64,000 bases of DNA from Kaistia terrae (GTDB lineage Bacteria > Pseudomonadota > Alphaproteobacteria > Rhizobiales > Kaistiaceae), in contig NZ_JAPKNH010000004.1 in assembly GCF_026344005.1 (NCBI RefSeq), forward strand, positions 372,001 through 436,000, in the 5' to 3' direction. The position numbers were made by a program, and so were the translations under genes. The stretch's first letter is position 1. Each line of letters opens with the position of its first letter. Below the pieces are notes generated by a model. The model saw nothing but the letters and a program-made list of their open reading frames with translations, was not told the DNA's origin and searched no databases. Below are positions 3,128 to 13,393 of this stretch, piece after piece.

Positions 3128-3754
3128 ATGCCCAGGGCCAAAAACCCACTTGCCACACCTCGTTGCCAGATCTGCCGCCACCCTGAACGGTTGCGGATCG
3201 AGATGGCACGCCTGAGCGGCGCTAGCCTCGACAGCATCGCCAAGAAGTTCACGATCGGCCGTGATGCCATCTGGCGGCACATGGAACAGCATGTCGATGG
3301 CGACCGCCGTTCCATGCTTGTGGCCGATGTTCCCCTGAAGGAACTGGCCGATCGTGCGGCAGAGGAAGGCCTCAGCCTCATCGACTATCTCGGCATTGTG
3401 CGGACCACGGTCCTCAATCAGCTGCTCGGTGCTGCATCGGTCAATGATCGCCATGGCACGGCATCGCTGGCCGGCAGGGCAACTGACGTGCTGCGTGAGA
3501 TCGGCAAGCTGACCGGCGAGATCCTGCGCTCGGCCCCGGTGTCGAACGTCACCAACAACACGATGGTGTTCATGAGCTCGCCGGCCTTCGCCAATCTGGA
3601 GCGGATGCTGATCGAACGGCTGGCCCCGCATCCGGAAGCCCTGCGGGCGGTGCTGGACGGCCTGCAGGCTCTGGAGTGCGGCGGTGCTGAGGGCGGGCCC
3701 ACGATCGAGGCCATCCCCATGATCACGGAGGCGCAGGATGCACGCGCAGCGTGA
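3128..3754 (+). CDS. Terminase small-subunit-like DNA-binding protein
   Basis: The 208-residue protein starts at MPRAKNPLATPRCQICRHPE. It has a CQIC pair followed by a helix-turn-helix (GASLDSIAKKFTIGRDAIWR), a layout common in small proteins encoded just before phage TerL. The rest is helical and may mediate oligomerisation. The 3' end overlaps terL by 17 bp, which implies coupled translation. No clear ribosome site precedes ATG 3128; an ATG at 3071 and the frame's start at 3062 are alternatives. The expected role is recognition of the packaging site and delivery of DNA to TerL. Confidence 0.65.
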   Translation: MPRAKNPLATPRCQICRHPERLRIEMARLSGASLDSIAKKFTIGRDAIWRHMEQHVDGDRRSMLVADVPLKELADRAAEEGLSLIDYLGIVRTTVLNQLLGAASVNDRHGTASLAGRATDVLREIGKLTGEILRSAPVSNVTNNTMVFMSSPAFANLERMLIERLAPHPEALRAVLDGLQALECGGAEGGPTIEAIPMITEAQDARAA

Positions 3755-5012
3755 TGGTGCCTTCTATGCCCGACTGGCCGAGACGCTGGCGAATAGCTGG
3801 CGGCTGAAGGCCCGGCCCGAACAGTTGCCTCCGGCTGGCGGGTGGCTGACCTGGTTGATCCTGGCCGGCCGCGGCTGGGGCAAGACGCGGACGGGCGCCG
3901 AATGGATCCAGGAGCAGGTTCTGACCGGCACCGCTTCCCGCATCGCCCTGGTGGCAGCGACAGCCTCCGATGCGCGTGACGTGATCGTCGAGGGCGAGAG
4001 CGGCCTGCTGGCCATCGCCCCGCGCGGCATGCGGCCCGAATACGAACCCTCCAAGCGCCGCCTGACTTGGCCTAACGGCGCCATGGCGACGACCTTCTCC
4101 GCAGATGAGCCGGACCGGTTGCGCGGGCCGCAGTTCGATGCCGCCTGGTGCGACGAGATTGCCGCGTGGAAGTATCCCGAAAGCTGGTCGATGCTGCAGT
4201 TCGGCCTCCGCCTCGGCAAGCAGCCGCGAGTGGTGGTGACGACGACGCCGAAGCCGGTGCAGATCATTCGCGACCTACAGCGCCGGCATATGGCCGGTGA
4301 CAAGACCATCGCCATCACGCGCGGGCGCACCAACGACAATCGCGACAACCTCGCCGCAACCTTCCTGGCTGAGATCGAGCGACGCTATGGCGGAACGCGC
4401 CTTGGCCGGCAGGAACTGAACGGCGAGCTTCTGGAGGACATCCCCGGTGCCCTGTGGACCCGGACGATGATCGATGCCGCGCAGGTAGATCGCCTCCCCG
4501 AAATGGCGCGCGTGGTCGTGGCGGTTGATCCCTCGGGCACCAAGGGCAGCGGGGATGACGGCGACAGCATCGGCATTGTGGTTGCTGGGAAGGGCATCGA
4601 CGGGCTCGGCTACATCCTGGCCGATCGCACCTGCAAGCTCTCGCCGGATGGCTGGGGACGCCGCGCGGTCGAGGCCTATCGCGAGTTCAAGGCGGACCGG
4701 ATCGTCGCTGAGCGCAACTTTGGCGGCGCCATGGTCGAGCATGTGCTCCGAACCGTCGATGCCAACATTCCCTACAAGGAAGTGACCGCCTCGCGCGGCA
4801 AGATCGCCCGGGCGGAGCCGGTGGCCGCTCTCTACGAGCAGTGCCGGGTCAAGCATCGGATCGGTTTGACCGAGCTCGAGGACCAGCTCTGCGCCATGAC
4901 CGCCGACGGCTATGTCGGCGACGGGTCCCCTGACCGGGCTGATGCGGCCGTTTGGGCACTCAGCGAACTGGTCGTGACCGGCTCGACTTTCACACTCGAC
5001 AACATTTGGTAG
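3738..5012 (+). CDS. Phage terminase large subunit
   Basis: The 424-residue protein has the full TerL architecture. The packaging ATPase has Walker A GRGWGKT (about residue 45), Walker B AAWCDEIAAW, and a TTTPKP coupling motif. The RNase H-like nuclease has acidic residues in VAVDPSGTKG, IVAERNFGG and DRADAAVWAL. Length and motifs fit the Terminase_6 group, close to the DNase/TerL of gene transfer agents and siphophages. It would pump DNA into proheads and cut concatemers. An 11-bp gap separates it from a DUF2213 gene; a portal gene, normally next, is absent, so the head module is incomplete. Confidence 0.93.
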   Translation: MHAQRDGAFYARLAETLANSWRLKARPEQLPPAGGWLTWLILAGRGWGKTRTGAEWIQEQVLTGTASRIALVAATASDARDVIVEGESGLLAIAPRGMRPEYEPSKRRLTWPNGAMATTFSADEPDRLRGPQFDAAWCDEIAAWKYPESWSMLQFGLRLGKQPRVVVTTTPKPVQIIRDLQRRHMAGDKTIAITRGRTNDNRDNLAATFLAEIERRYGGTRLGRQELNGELLEDIPGALWTRTMIDAAQVDRLPEMARVVVAVDPSGTKGSGDDGDSIGIVVAGKGIDGLGYILADRTCKLSPDGWGRRAVEAYREFKADRIVAERNFGGAMVEHVLRTVDANIPYKEVTASRGKIARAEPVAALYEQCRVKHRIGLTELEDQLCAMTADGYVGDGSPDRADAAVWALSELVVTGSTFTLDNIW

Positions 5013-9949: not shown

Positions 9950-9987
9950 CCTGCGACGTGACAGTTCAAGCCCCCGCTAGGGGCGCC

Positions 9988-10013
9988 GGCCGGTGAGGAT
10001 TAGCCTCCCGGCC
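9988..10013 (+). terminator. Hairpin downstream of the two-gene cassette
   Basis: GGCCGG-t-GAGG pairs with CCTC-CCGGCC around a 5-base loop, followed shortly by AGTTTTAAG. This is a plausible rho-independent terminator for the preceding cassette, placed just before the tRNA gene. A similar GGCCGGTGAGGAT element is used at 12173. Confidence 0.5.
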
Positions 10014-10025
10014 ACCAAGTTTTAA

Positions 10026-10102
10026 GTCGGCGTGGAGCAGCCCGGTAGCTCGCCAGGTTCATACCCTGGAGGACGGCGGTTCGAATCCGCCCGCCGCAAC
10101 CA
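10026..10102 (+). tRNA. Initiator-like tRNA-Met (CAT)
   Basis: A 77-base cloverleaf with an encoded CCA (10100-10102), the initiator D-arm signature TGGAGCAGCCCGGTAGCTCG, anticodon stem CCAGG/CCTGG with loop TTCATAC (anticodon CAT), and T-arm GGCGG TTCGAAT CCGCC. The acceptor pairs well for five base pairs, but positions 1-72 (G and A) and 2-71 (T and C) are unpaired. An unpaired 1-72 is the bacterial initiator hallmark; the second mismatch is unusual. It lies within prophage DNA, so it is either a phage-carried or a decaying copy rather than the main initiator gene. Confidence 0.75.
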
Positions 10103-10111
10103 AATTCAACG

Positions 10112-10339
10112 CTATTCGCCAACGGCCTTTAGGCCGAACAAGCCGAGATGCAGGGCAATGGGCCAGATGGCTGTAGCGACGGTCGAGACTGCAACAGTCG
10201 TGGCCAGAACCAATTCGAACCAGCGTAACGAGACGACCTGCTTGGTCATGACCTCCTTGCCGTCCCAGAAGAGCTTGCCGTCTTTGACATGCATCTTCTT
10301 GATGTCATTCCAACCCATCTCTTTGCCCTGTTGATCCAT
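10112..10339 (-). CDS. Small membrane protein, cargo of divergent module 1
   Basis: The 75-residue protein has a short soluble N-terminus (KKMHVKDGKLFWDGKEVM) and one hydrophobic C-terminal helix region (LVLATTVAVSTVATAIWPIA). Proteins of this outline are frequent accessory genes in alphaproteobacterial prophages; I know no function. Its start codon (10337-10339) overlaps the start of the rightward terminase-like frame in a CATG. A strong ribosome site, GGGAGG on the minus strand, lies inside the first codons of that rightward frame. The expression signals of this gene are therefore carried by the terminase-like sequence. Confidence 0.6.
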   Translation of the reverse strand: MDQQGKEMGWNDIKKMHVKDGKLFWDGKEVMTKQVVSLRWFELVLATTVAVSTVATAIWPIALHLGLFGLKAVGE

Positions 10340-10730
10340 GACAGTCCTCCCAAATCCCCGTCATGAATCATTCTCTCAGGCGTTGGCCAAGGGCAAGACG
10401 GCTGATGAGGCCTATGCACAGGCCGGCTATGCGCCCAATCGCGGCAATGCCACCCGCATGAAAGCAAATGAAAGCATCCGGAAACGGGTGGATGAACTTC
10501 AGGGCCGGAGCGCCAAGCGGGTCGAGGTGACCGTCGAAAGCCTTGCCGCCGAGCTCGAAGAGGCCCGCGCGCTCGCCCTTACAGAGAAGCAAACCGGTGC
10601 CGCCGTCTCCGCCACCATGGGCGAGGCGAAGCTACTGCGTCTGGCGATGCAAATGCCGGCCTTCGACAGCGGGCCCGGGCACCGCCAGCGGTGTCACTGC
10701 GCGGCAGGTGCTGTTTGTTGGGTTGGTTGA
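10338..10730 (+). pseudogene. Terminase small-subunit-like frame, copy 1 (3'-truncated)
   Basis: The first about 95 residues (PNPRHESFSQALAKGKTADE, AYAQAGYAPNRGNATRMKAN, VTVESLAAELEEARALALTE) match the N-terminus of terminase small subunits of rhizobial phages. After GEAKLL the family-typical C-terminus is replaced by an unrelated Cys/His-rich tail that looks like an out-of-frame read into another gene. No ribosome site precedes the ATG. About 82% of the first 234 bases, and all of the last 156, match a second copy at 12968. I read it as a decayed gene whose 5' end still serves as promoter and ribosome-site region for the divergent cargo gene. Confidence 0.6.
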
Positions 10731-10789
10731 CGCCGTAATCGTGCATCCCAGCGCACCGGGCAACACTTCTTTTCCGGAAGGGAGGCCTC

Positions 10790-11728
10790 ATGGCTAATAT
10801 TCCTCGCCTGTTCGCCGGACAGCTTTCACCCGGCGATTTCCGCGCCCGTATCAGCAAGCCCGACCAGGATGCGTCTGATCCAAACCTCGGCCGCGAACAT
10901 ATCGACTTTGACACGGCTTGGCCGTTCGCCGGCAACATCCACGCGGTGGTGAAACAAAGGATCAACGGCATTAATGCCAACCAGACCCCGGATGCAGCTA
11001 ACTTGAGCCCGAGGACCATCTATTTCTCGGCGCTGCCCTATGTTCCCTGCGTCAAGATCTTCCTGTCAGCCCCGGATGGGTCGTCGATCACTTGGCGCGA
11101 AGATGTCGGCCCGAACGCGCCGGGCGCGGGCTCACTCACCTATGAGGCGTTTAACGATCGGGTGGTGATCTACTCTCAGTCCGGGCAGTTCCGGTTCAAT
11201 AATCTAGTCTGCGCCGTCGTCTTCAAGATCCCCGCTCGCGACCTCGGTATCGTCGGCAATGATCCGCATCCCCTCGCACGGATGCTGATGGGGAAGCGCG
11301 GGGACGACTATGGCCTCTACGCATCGCGGCCGGGCTTCGACGTCCGGACGTGCTCAAAAGCGCAAATGATATTTAGCTCGGACGACGAGTTTACGGTGAT
11401 TAACGGGACGGACAGCAATTCCGTAAAGGGGACGGCAAAAACCGCGACCGACAATACCTTTACGACGATCCACTTCTCCTACGACTGGAAGGGTTACATC
11501 CCGATCGTGCTGTTCTTCTGCACGTTCGACGGGTCGGCCGGTCTAGGGCGAAACTATGTCCTGCCGGCGGACAGGGAGATCAACACGTGGGGCGGTGCCT
11601 ATCCCGCGTCCGGGTTTATCACTTTCCCATCGCCCGGCGTGGGTATGGTCAGTCTCAGGCGGATCGGGGAACTGTCCACCATCTATTATTCGCTGATCGT
11701 GCTCGACGAGCCTCTCCCGACGGGTTGA
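10790..11728 (+). CDS. Phage structural-like hypothetical protein
   Basis: A 312-residue protein with a strong ribosome site (GGAAGGGAGG before ATG 10790). It is rich in beta-forming, Gly/Asn/Tyr/Phe segments (AGQLSPGDFRARISKPDQDA at the start, VVIYSQSGQFRFNNLVCAVV, TFTTIHFSYDWKGYIPIVLF) and lacks a signal peptide or catalytic motif. Proteins with such N-termini occur near tail or lysis genes of alphaproteobacterial phages, so a virion protein is likely. It is isolated here, with no tail genes around it, consistent with a degraded prophage. The 31-bp repeat and a DUF2171 gene follow. Confidence 0.55.
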   Translation: MANIPRLFAGQLSPGDFRARISKPDQDASDPNLGREHIDFDTAWPFAGNIHAVVKQRINGINANQTPDAANLSPRTIYFSALPYVPCVKIFLSAPDGSSITWREDVGPNAPGAGSLTYEAFNDRVVIYSQSGQFRFNNLVCAVVFKIPARDLGIVGNDPHPLARMLMGKRGDDYGLYASRPGFDVRTCSKAQMIFSSDDEFTVINGTDSNSVKGTAKTATDNTFTTIHFSYDWKGYIPIVLFFCTFDGSAGLGRNYVLPADREINTWGGAYPASGFITFPSPGVGMVSLRRIGELSTIYYSLIVLDEPLPTG

Positions 11729-11778
11729 TCTGTCTCAGCCGAGCGCAAGCGAGCACCTCACAGCAAAATAGAAGAGCC

Positions 11779-11809
11779 GCGCCGCAGAATCCTCGCTCGA
11801 TATGAGCAA
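11779..11809 (+). repeat. 31-bp direct repeat, copy 2
   Basis: Second copy of the repeat at 9919-9949 (28 of 31 identical), 50 bp after the structural-like gene. It contains an in-frame ATGAGCAAG, but no ribosome site precedes it, so I do not call a gene here. Confidence 0.5.
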
Positions 11810-11886
11810 GCCGCCGGCTGAGATTTCGACCGGCGTGCATCCAAGTTGTCCGGTCCGCGTTGCCCTCCGCAACCTAGGAGGACAAA

Positions 11887-12147
11887 ATGGTCGATGCATC
11901 TCAGATTCAGGAACACGCGGAAGTCATCGGAGCGGACGGTGCCCATATCGGAACCGTGGACGGCGTCGAAGGTGACCGCATCAAGTTGACCAAGTCGGAC
12001 AGCGGCGTGGGCGCCCACGAGGGCCATCACCATTTCATCCCCTTGTCCCTGGTCGCCGACGTCGAGGGCACCCAAGTGCGACTGTCGGCCAATGCCGACG
12101 TTGCCGTGACCTATGAACAGGAACAGGGCGGGGAACCGACGGAATAG
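11887..12147 (+). CDS. DUF2171 family protein
   Basis: An 86-residue protein, MVDASQIQEHAEVIGADGAH, followed by IGTVDGVEGDRIKLTKSDSG and HHHFIPLSLVADVEG: the PRC-barrel-like DUF2171 pattern, widespread in alphaproteobacteria as a small soluble protein of unknown function, sometimes stress-induced. AGGAGG (11876-11881) gives an excellent ribosome site. The histidine-rich GAHEGHHHF could bind metal. A terminator follows at 12173. It is not a typical phage gene and probably entered as cargo. Confidence 0.75.
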   Translation: MVDASQIQEHAEVIGADGAHIGTVDGVEGDRIKLTKSDSGVGAHEGHHHFIPLSLVADVEGTQVRLSANADVAVTYEQEQGGEPTE

Positions 12148-12172
12148 ACCCCGCTCGTCAGTCCAATTTTGG

Positions 12173-12206
12173 GCGGCCGGTGAGGATGAACTCGCTGGCC
12201 GCTTTT
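12173..12206 (+). terminator. Rho-independent terminator after the DUF2171 gene
   Basis: GCGGCC (12173-12178) pairs with GGCCGC (12197-12202) with inner GAG/CTC pairing, followed directly by TTTT. It shares the GGCCGGTGAGGAT core with the hairpin at 9988. Confidence 0.6.
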
Positions 12207-12271
12207 ATGATCTGGGTCTTGCGCTTAATGCCCTGCAACGGCACTTTGTGCCGGAATGAAATGAGGGGCAG

Positions 12272-12523
12272 ATGCTCAACACGTTGTACGCGGCGCTTAT
12301 CGCTGCATGCTTATACTTAGGCTATGTGCAGTTTGCGCTTTGGGTGTTGGTGCCTCTCGGGGCGCTGGCGGTTTTGCTATTCTTCTTCAGCAATCGTGCA
12401 GCGTTCGAAGTCGGCATGCGCGAGCGTGGCCCGATTTACTTCCTCATCATTTTGACCGGCAACATCATTCTGTGCGGCGCCGCTTTCGCCATAGGCTGGG
12501 TCGCATCGACGTTCTTATCGTGA
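12272..12523 (+). CDS. Small membrane protein
   Basis: The 83-residue product is mainly two or three membrane helices (LNTLYAALIAACLYLGYVQF, LWVLVPLGALAVLLFFFSN and YFLIILTGNIILCGAAFAIG) joined by a short charged loop (RAAFEVGMRERGP). GAGGGG sits about 7 bases before the ATG. No family is recognised; prophage-region membrane proteins of this size can be holins or accessory genes. It converges on the zinc-ribbon gene at 12535. Confidence 0.55.
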   Translation: MLNTLYAALIAACLYLGYVQFALWVLVPLGALAVLLFFFSNRAAFEVGMRERGPIYFLIILTGNIILCGAAFAIGWVASTFLS

Positions 12524-12534
12524 ACTGAGCCGCG

Positions 12535-12969
12535 CTAGGGTGCCTTTTTGATCCAGCTGAATTCGGTAACGTGACCGAAATCTGCATGGCATTTAGGGCA
12601 GACCTTGGGCCGTCCGGAACGGTTGGCGGAGACCAGCCGACTGAACTGCCCTTTCTCAAGGCAGAGTGGGCAGAATGGCAACCCAACCTTGTCTCCGTCC
12701 GCGCTCAGCTCATAGGTGTATCCTCTATAGTGTTCCGTCCTGTCTGTTTTAAAAGCGATGGCGTCCTGTAAACGCGCTATCTCTTTCTCACCAGCATGAA
12801 GCTCATCAGCGACGTCAACGAGACCCAGCTTTGCGTCGGCGAGTGCTGTCGTTAACTCAGCAACTTTGAGCTTCAGCGAAGCCTGGTCGACCTGAATATC
12901 GACGTTGTTCAGCTCCCTGGCGAACCCAATCGCAGCGGTCACCGCAGAAATAGCCCCACCGATATCCAT
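12535..12969 (-). CDS. Helical zinc-ribbon protein, cargo of divergent module 2
   Basis: The 144-residue protein starts MDIGGAISAVTAAIGFAREL. It has a helical, probably coiled-coil middle (VAELTTALADAKLGLVDVAD and the following helix) and a C-terminal zinc ribbon with CPLC and CPKC pairs 23 residues apart. The N-terminal helix could associate with membrane. Its start (12967-12969) overlaps the rightward terminase-like start in a CATG, exactly as in module 1. A GGGGAG ribosome site on the minus strand is embedded in the codons for VLPNP of that frame. The two cargo genes (10112 and 12535) are unrelated in sequence although their 5' control DNA is shared. Confidence 0.6.
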   Translation of the reverse strand: MDIGGAISAVTAAIGFARELNNVDIQVDQASLKLKVAELTTALADAKLGLVDVADELHAGEKEIARLQDAIAFKTDRTEHYRGYTYELSADGDKVGLPFCPLCLEKGQFSRLVSANRSGRPKVCPKCHADFGHVTEFSWIKKAP

Positions 12970-13393
12970 GCCTGTTCTCCCCAATCCCCGTCATGAGAGC
13001 TTCACCCAGGCGCTGGTCAAGGGCAAGACAGCTGATGACGCCTACGCACAGGCCGGCTATATGCCCGATCGGGGCAACGCGTCGCGCATTAAAGCAAATG
13101 AAAGCATCCGGAAGCGGGTGGACGAATTGCAGGGGCGGAGCGCGAAGCGGGTCGAGGTGACTGTCGAAAGCCTCGCCGCCGAGTTGGGAGAGGCTCGGGC
13201 TCTCGCCCTTACAGAGAAGCAAACCGGTGCCGCCGTCTCCGCCACCATGGGCGAGGCGAAGCTACTGCGTCTGGCGATGCAAATGCCGGCCTTCGACAGC
13301 GGGCCCGGGCACCGCCAGCGGTGTCACTGCGCGGCAGGTGCTGTTTGTTGGGTTGGTCGTTTCCCTGGTTTCAGAGCTTCTGAAGGGGCTTAG
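12968..13393 (+). pseudogene. Terminase small-subunit-like frame, copy 2 (3'-truncated)
   Basis: Second copy of the frame at 10338, aligned without gaps at an offset of 2,630 bp. Bases 12968-13201 differ from copy 1 at many mostly silent positions, while 13202-13357 are identical to 10572-10727. It carries the same non-native tail after GEAKLL and no ribosome site. After 13357 the copies diverge completely. The abrupt change from about 82% to 100% identity indicates recent recombination or gene conversion of the 3' part. Confidence 0.6.

What the first reader, a model, noticed from the sequence alone, without database searches (positions are those of the whole stretch)
10112..13393. Duplicated divergent module: truncated terminase-like frame shares a CATG start with unrelated cargo genes
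Seen: at 10337-10340 and again at 12967-12970 a CATG serves as the start for both a leftward gene and a rightward terminase-small-subunit-like frame. The leftward genes (a 75-residue membrane protein; a 144-residue zinc-ribbon protein) are unrelated, yet both use a GGGAGG/GGGGAG ribosome site lying inside the rightward frame's first codons (VLPNP). The rightward frames have no ribosome site and a false C-terminus. Inference: the 5' end of the old terminase gene is kept as a promoter and ribosome-site platform to which different cargo genes are joined exactly at the start codon.
Basis: partly seen in the sequence, partly recalled or inferred. Interest (0 to 1): 0.7.

Follow-up and report, generated by a model that had tools for sequence, protein, structure and literature searches.

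The report
Start-codon junction that swaps phage genes
In a group of bacterial viruses, the first few codons of the DNA-packaging gene also serve, on the other strand, as the ribosome site for a neighbouring gene, and many unrelated genes have been swapped in there, joined exactly at the shared start codon.

Summary
At 10337-10340 and 12967-12970 one CATG starts a leftward cargo gene and a rightward small-terminase (terS) frame; the cargo's Shine-Dalgarno (SD) site lies inside terS codons 3-5.

Among 44 non-redundant sites with this terS start, 32 have CATG, and 31 of those 32 carry a leftward ORF of at least 66 aa. Controls: 150 of 647 other gene starts with CATG; 37.7% of 16,268 CATGs. The 31 plus one annotated plasmid case (L284) give 32 cargo proteins in 25 BLAST families.

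Phage pairs share DNA that begins within 0-3 nt of this ATG, with unrelated cargo to the left. In 10 of 31 sites the terS frame is cut to 12-70 codons, in most of them beside a different packaging gene. Three of six swap pairs show mismatch patterns like crossovers inside the terS 5' end; three do not.

Best reading: a phage module-boundary sequence that is also an antisense ribosome site. The window copies are decayed, stacked modules. A promoter in the element is not shown; there are no transcript data.

The parts
10112..10339 (-). Cargo gene 1, 75-aa small membrane-type protein; same BLAST family as cargo of L139 and, through L139, L114
   Evidence: ORF; BLAST cluster; membrane type judged by eye
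10337..10340 (.). Shared CATG: start codons of cargo 1 and the terS frame
10346..10351 (-). Shine-Dalgarno core of cargo 1 (GGGAGG on - strand) inside terS codons 3-5
   Evidence: sequence; -10.2 kcal/mol
10338..10397 (+). Leader: first 60 nt of terS, the unit conserved between loci
   Evidence: nhmmer 2e-15; island analysis
10338..10730 (+). terS remnant 1, false C-terminus after about codon 101
   Evidence: phrog_51 1.5e-12
10578..10722 (+). Stretch identical to 13208-13352 (recombined or converted 3' part of the copies)
   Evidence: 0 of 145 mismatches
12535..12969 (-). Cargo gene 2, 144-aa coiled/zinc-ribbon protein (phrog_1244); relatives at the same junction in L159/L030 and L111, and on the second leader type in L210, L189
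12967..12970 (.). Shared CATG: start codons of cargo 2 and the terS frame
12977..12982 (-). Shine-Dalgarno core of cargo 2 (GGGGAG on - strand) inside terS codons 4-5
   Evidence: sequence; -8.5 kcal/mol
12968..13027 (+). Leader copy 2
   Evidence: nhmmer 9e-18
12968..13393 (+). terS remnant 2, false C-terminus
   Evidence: phrog_51 3e-10
13208..13352 (+). Stretch identical to 10578-10722
10026..10102 (+). tRNA-Met (CAT) at the far end of cargo 1; tRNA-Met near cargo also in L160, L153, L159, L050, L162 and phiLM21
9987..10013 (.). 27-nt hairpin-like repeat left of module 1 (copy at 12174-12200, 78%)

Best explanation
The first ~60 nt of terS in a lineage of temperate-type phages (the named genome hits are alphaproteobacteria) is a module-boundary element with two jobs. 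Read rightward it encodes the terS N-terminus. Read leftward it supplies the start codon (the CATG is shared) and a strong SD site for a divergent cargo gene. Because the SD sits at a fixed distance, a foreign gene is expressed only if its own start codon lands on the CATG; this makes the junction exact (inferred from selection). Phages sharing the element then exchange or stack cargo, probably by homologous recombination in the terS 5' end, so that incoming cargo brings its own first part of terS (about 18 to 240 nt in three pairs). When the packaging module is later replaced, the 5' end of the old terS survives because the cargo still needs its ribosome site. In the window two such modules were stacked and then decayed with the prophage. 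Shown by sequence: shared CATG, antisense SD, cargo turnover at the ATG, retained 5' fragments. Inferred: recombination route, selection on geometry, expression in the lysogen. Unproven: a promoter in the element.
For: 31 of 32 CATG sites with leftward ORF >=66 aa. 25 cargo families among 32; only Met1 invariant in their alignment. Exact swaps by blastn: L032/L033 homology starts at the ATG (90% over 6.3 kb), L035/L036 2 nt left of it, L097/L123 and L055/L123 at the C of CATG, L139/L142 3 nt left of it and over a truncated leader. Reverse case: L029/L137 and L030/L111 share cargo, with blastn homology ending 65-79 nt into terS. 60-nt islands up to 93% identical with flanks 32% and 23-32% in ungapped comparison. 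Crossover-like gradients in 3 of the 6 swap pairs inspected: L032/L033 3/18 then 0/179 mismatches; L035/L036 12/69 then 6/141; window pair 38/240 then 0/145 (cut points chosen by eye). Leftward SD <= -4 in 31/31, terS's own SD in 2/31. Leu4 codon CTC/CTT in 31/31 vs 19/91 in the sister type (p 3e-16). Of 10 sites with a terS frame of 12-70 codons, 6 lie beside a packaging gene of another PHROG (546, 606, 83, 15261/641; L153 judged from L128, same junction) and 2 beside a divergent phrog_51 member. A scan with the terS middle/C-terminus gave 37 loci: 2 cut by a contig edge, none of the other 35 an orphan 3' fragment (22 with this N-terminal type, 13 with another). Cargo joined at its native start: zinc-ribbon homologs in Sphingomonas and Bermanella plasmids align from residue 1 at their annotated start. 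Purifying selection on cargo: L159/L111 dN/dS 0.076.
Against: No promoter signal above control. Three of six swap pairs (L097/L123, L055/L123, L139/L142) show no such gradient, or more change beyond the leader than in it. The search pattern itself requires CTN-CCN, so a leftward SD is partly built in: VLPN sites without shared cargo also have it (12 of 13 <= -4). L093/L161 has CATG and no cargo (12 aa). One truncated site (L037) lies beside its own intact terS, and for L141 no terS was looked for. Cargo coding scores did not separate from control ORFs (30/32 positive, but 66% of control also). Sites are related, so counts are not independent. How terS is translated without an SD is unexplained.
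Confidence: 0.74

Rival explanations
1. Ordinary illegitimate recombination plus selection: cargo breaks fall at gene edges because others are lethal, and the conserved 60 nt mainly reflects terS coding constraint. The element is not a recombination linker.
For: Module borders match gene borders in many phages without conserved boundary sequences (passages of PMC3029335 and PMC3233612). Three of six swap pairs show no crossover-like gradient in the leader.
Against: Leaders persist where the rest of that terS is gone and another packaging gene follows; synonymous sites of codons 18-20 fixed while neighbours vary; mismatch gradients in three pairs.
Confidence: 0.23
2. The terS 5' end is kept because it holds the packaging recognition site (cos/pac), not because of the cargo.
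For: Small terminases recognise DNA at cos sites (start of the abstract of PMC10370121 in the listing; pac sites inside terS are recalled).
Against: Fossil leaders lie beside packaging genes of other families and abut a cargo start codon; a packaging site needs neither.
Confidence: 0.06
3. Spurious antisense ORFs in GC-rich DNA.
For: 37.7% of all CATGs in these loci open a leftward ORF of >=66 aa; coding scores do not discriminate.
Against: 31 of 32 here; homologous cargo under purifying selection; one is annotated independently in RefSeq (L284, WP_309164186.1); one family recurs on a second leader type aligned from residue 1.
Confidence: 0.02

Closest known systems
Conserved boundary (linker) sequences at module junctions of mosaic phages (model described in PMC3029335 and PMC3233612, passages seen; original lambdoid work recalled)
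   Same: Short conserved sequence between modules that are unrelated on both sides; homologous exchange proposed there
   Different: Here it lies inside the 5' coding end of terS, overlaps both start codons and carries the neighbour's ribosome site on the other strand; [quoted passage not shown]
Start-Associated Sequences (SAS/ESAS) of Cluster K mycobacteriophages (PMC3203893, passages seen)
   Same: A conserved element directly before the start codons of genes of many families, many copies per genome
   Different: SAS was scanned there as 13 bp GGGATAGGAGCCC and is not described as another gene's codons; that motif is absent from the leader consensus
Phage morons (recalled)
   Same: Small extra genes, often on the opposite strand, that change between related phages
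   Different: Morons are defined by their own promoter and terminator; here the ribosome site is borrowed from terS and no promoter is shown
Sinorhizobium phage phiLM21
   Same: Related terS N-terminus (70% over 54 aa), divergent 55-aa ORF, tRNA-Met nearby
   Different: Uses the second leader type (SD in a 23-bp gap, no shared CATG); that ORF is not annotated in the record

Membership tests
Phage boundary/linker sequence | Short conserved sequence flanked by unrelated DNA on both sides in different phages | tested here: met
   60-nt leader up to 93% identical with flanks 32% and 23-32%, ungapped; one listed pair, L139/L142, is in fact homologous on the right when gaps are allowed
Phage boundary/linker sequence | Homologous exchange takes place in it | tested here: inconclusive
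   Mismatch gradients in 3 of 6 pairs, cut points chosen after inspection; no cross done
Phage boundary/linker sequence | Lies between genes | tested here: not met
   Lies in terS codons 1-20
Moron | Extra gene absent from or different in close relatives | tested here: met
   L032/L033, L035/L036, L139/L142
Moron | Own promoter | tested here: inconclusive
   No clear sigma-70-like excess; conserved CTTGCCCTT on the leftward strand
Moron | Own terminator; expressed in the lysogen | not tested
   no transcript data; terminators not scanned
Cluster K SAS | Conserved element before starts of unrelated genes | tested here: met
Cluster K SAS | Motif GGGATAGGAGCCC | tested here: not met
   leader consensus printed does not contain it (by eye)
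Small terminase subunit (phrog_51) | N-terminal terS profile match | tested here: met
Small terminase subunit (phrog_51) | Complete C-terminal part | tested here: not met
   window copies run into a shared non-terS tail after about codon 101

The most novel reading that the evidence does not exclude
A recombinase-free cargo-exchange system: the 5' end of a packaging gene is under dual selection, as codons and as an antisense translation start of fixed geometry, and this keeps a near-identical 60-nt linker across phages that lets many genes be plugged in at their own start codon, exchanged by general recombination and stacked in tandem. Cargo mRNA from the lysogen would run antisense to terS and could also hold terS down until induction.
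Probability: 0.33. Interest if true: 0.85.

Novelty: new variant of a known kind. Interest (0 to 1): 0.72.

Why it matters
Whether phage mosaicism arises by recombination at conserved boundary sequences or by random joining plus selection is an old question; [quoted passage not shown] Here is a border with a countable, exact junction, a reason for its conservation (antisense ribosome site in a packaging gene) and natural pairs showing the swap, so the two models make different, measurable predictions. It also gives a handle for finding small unannotated cargo genes: look left of the terS start.

Tried and rejected
A sigma-70 promoter in the leader was tried and not supported. Codon-score proof of coding was tried and did not discriminate. 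A common site at the far end of the cargo, as for integron-like cassettes, was looked for only by eye in the 31 downstream ends printed; none was seen, though tRNA-Met genes recur (6 of 31). A pattern for the shared terS tail gave 0 exact matches in viral contigs. Host-genome surveys gave little: the leader pattern occurs in 2 of 397 genomes of the order and 1 of 385 of the class, own genome included in each. The phage collection held no match for either window cargo. No structures were predicted. Papers: the listings (0 papers), of which only the top 10-15 titles were shown each time, contained no description of this junction; of PMC12429752 (phiLM21-like prophages) I saw only passages, which do not mention it. 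Most subscription papers are not in that library.
Full report
What is in the window. Two modules lie in what looks like a decayed prophage region. Each has a leftward cargo gene (75 aa at 10112-10339; 144 aa at 12535-12969) and a rightward terS-like frame (10338-10730; 12968-13393) that start in one CATG. The frames match phrog_51 terminase small subunit at their N-terminal part. The similarity to terS ends near codon 101, and both frames run into the same foreign tail. The two copies differ at 38 of the first 240 nt and are identical over the next 145. The leftward SD sites are strong (-10.2, -8.5 kcal/mol) and there is none for the terS frames (+0.6, +0.3). A third terS-like remnant on contig C23 of the same genome, out of frame with its own start, does not share its CATG with a gene: the leftward frame there is 9 codons.

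Is it general? I scanned IMG/VR for terS starts coding M-x-(V/I)-L-P-N-x-R-H-(D/E) without asking for the base before the ATG (45 stretches, 46 sites). After adding all other loci and the window, and dropping duplicates and sites with under 250 nt on the left, 44 sites remained: base before ATG C 32, A 9, G 3. Of the 32 CATG sites 31 open a leftward ORF of 66-243 aa; one opens 12 aa. Controls from the same loci: 150 of 647 other rightward ORFs of >=150 aa that start with CATG, and 37.7% of 16,268 CATGs; binomial 5e-19 and 1.5e-12, overstated because sites are related. There the cargo starts further left: 65 of 92 sites have a leftward ATG ORF of >=35 aa, 57 of the 65 at a gap of 17-24 bp, in 45 BLAST clusters. 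Single ORFs that short are weak evidence. The gap typically reads like CAT-n-TCCTCCCAAGGTTAACC-CATG and holds the cargo SD. So there seem to be two forms of one boundary; in the form seen here the ribosome site lies in terS.

The cargo is exchanged at the start codon. The 31 cargo proteins and one from a plasmid (L284, in RefSeq as a 4-fold beta-flower protein with this very start) fall into 25 BLAST families; their alignment keeps only Met1. Pfam/PHROG names at E<=0.01 include DUF2321 (2 members), beta-flower (2), a Cro/C1-type HTH (1) and phrog_1244 (3). PADLOC gave only single-member hits. Pairwise blastn: L032 and L033 are 90% identical over 6.3 kb starting at the ATG, with unrelated DNA to its left until homology resumes about 600 bp away; L035/L036, L097/L123 and L055/L123 start within 2 nt of the ATG. 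L139 and L142 start 3 nt left of it, although both have only a truncated leader and a divergent terS downstream, with cargo of 67 and 194 aa. Conversely L029/L137 and L030/L111 share cargo, and their blastn homology ends 65-79 nt into terS.

The joined codon is the cargo's own start. Homologs of the 144-aa zinc-ribbon protein outside phages align from residue 1 at their annotated starts in Sphingomonas and Bermanella plasmids, and within a few codons of it in others; on the VLKN leader type L210 and L189 align from residue 1 to 1 (52% and 42%). This was tested for one cargo family only. Cargo is under purifying selection where pairs exist: L159/L111 dN/dS 0.076, and pS 0.77-0.85 against pN 0.18-0.33 in four saturated pairs.

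The terS 5' end outlives terS. In 10 of 31 sites the terS frame is only 12-70 codons. Beside eight of these I found another packaging gene: phrog_546 (L143, and L153 judged from L128 with the same junction), phrog_606 (L158), phrog_15261/641 (L114, L160), phrog_83 (L137) and a divergent phrog_51 member (L142, L139). Phrog_546 and 15261 have no named function; their terS role is inferred from their place before terL in L143 and L114. L037 has its own intact terS next door; L141 was not examined further. Profile alignments of 28 truncated copies of both types (E 1e-18 to 3.7; L138, L279 and L230 weak) end between +58 and +69 in 13 cases. A reverse test, a scan with the terS middle and C-terminus, gave 37 loci; two are cut by a contig edge and none of the other 35 is an orphan 3' fragment, but exact peptide seeds limit that scan. 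Tandem stacking is seen in L037 (three leaders, leftward ORFs of 151, 77 and 66 aa, then intact terS; the first leader is only a weak match, E 0.1) and in L115 (three pieces).

Selection on the antisense signal. The leftward SD is <= -4 kcal/mol in 31 of 31 shared sites, while terS's own SD is so in 2 of 31, against 53% of long-ORF starts and 30% of random 20-mers. Because the pattern fixes CTN-CCN, a better test is codon choice: Leu4 is CTC/CTT in 31 of 31, 9 of 13 VLPN sites without shared cargo (p 0.005) and 19 of 91 VLKN sites (p 3e-16), while CTG is 38% of CTN use. In 20 shared terS frames of >=120 codons (window copies included) codons 18-20 (AAG GGC AAG) show no synonymous change (18/18, 19/19, 19/19) although codons 14-17 and 21-23 vary. 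On the leftward strand this reads CTTGCCCTT and could be a promoter part, but a sigma-70 scan found no clear excess.

How exchange happens (inference). In L032/L033 the first 18 nt of terS differ at 3 positions and the next 179 at none; in L035/L036 12/69 then 6/141; in the window pair 38/240 then 0/145. The cut points were chosen after seeing the data, and three further pairs (L097/L123, L055/L123, L139/L142) show no such gradient or the opposite. The pattern in the first three is what homologous crossover inside the terS 5' end would leave: cargo arrives with its own piece of terS. The exact junction is then inherited, and each new cargo family needs one founding fusion, which only works if its start codon meets the fixed SD.

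Known or new. Boundary sequences between phage modules and start-associated sequences are known kinds (passages seen). I found no report, in the searches named in Tried and rejected, of one placed inside a packaging gene's 5' codons with the neighbour's ribosome site on the other strand. I file it as a new variant of a known kind. Open points: promoter, terS translation without an SD, independence of the counts, the recombination route, and any expression data.

Noticed in passing
window 10026-10102: tRNA-Met (CAT) about 9 bp beyond the end of cargo 1; tRNA-Met lies within 2.5 kb left of the junction in 6 of 31 sites (window, L160, L153, L159, L050, L162) and near it in phiLM21.
   Followed up: partly
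window 9987-10013 and 12174-12200; L003 about 205-235: Hairpin-like 27-mer repeated left of each module and seen in the C23 remnant; perhaps a terminator.
   Followed up: no
window 12272-12523 and L004:7033-7329: 83-aa membrane-type protein with a very similar copy (by eye) in the C23 prophage remnant.
   Followed up: no
window 10790-11728: 312-aa rightward ORF with an SD-like GGGAGG upstream and no Pfam or PHROG family, between the two modules.
   Followed up: no
L283:3810-3977 (-): Unannotated 55-aa leftward ORF in phage phiLM21, 23 bp from terS; it resembles the cargo of L250 by eye.
   Followed up: partly
L258, L247, L230, L267: In VLKN-type phages terS 5' frames of 16-23 codons run straight into what looks like a new rightward gene start, as if the leader also serves rightward replacements.
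   Followed up: no
window 3738-5012: Large terminase (phrog_979) elsewhere in the window, not next to the two terS remnants; window 7272-8345 matches the NA37 nucleoid-associated family.
   Followed up: no
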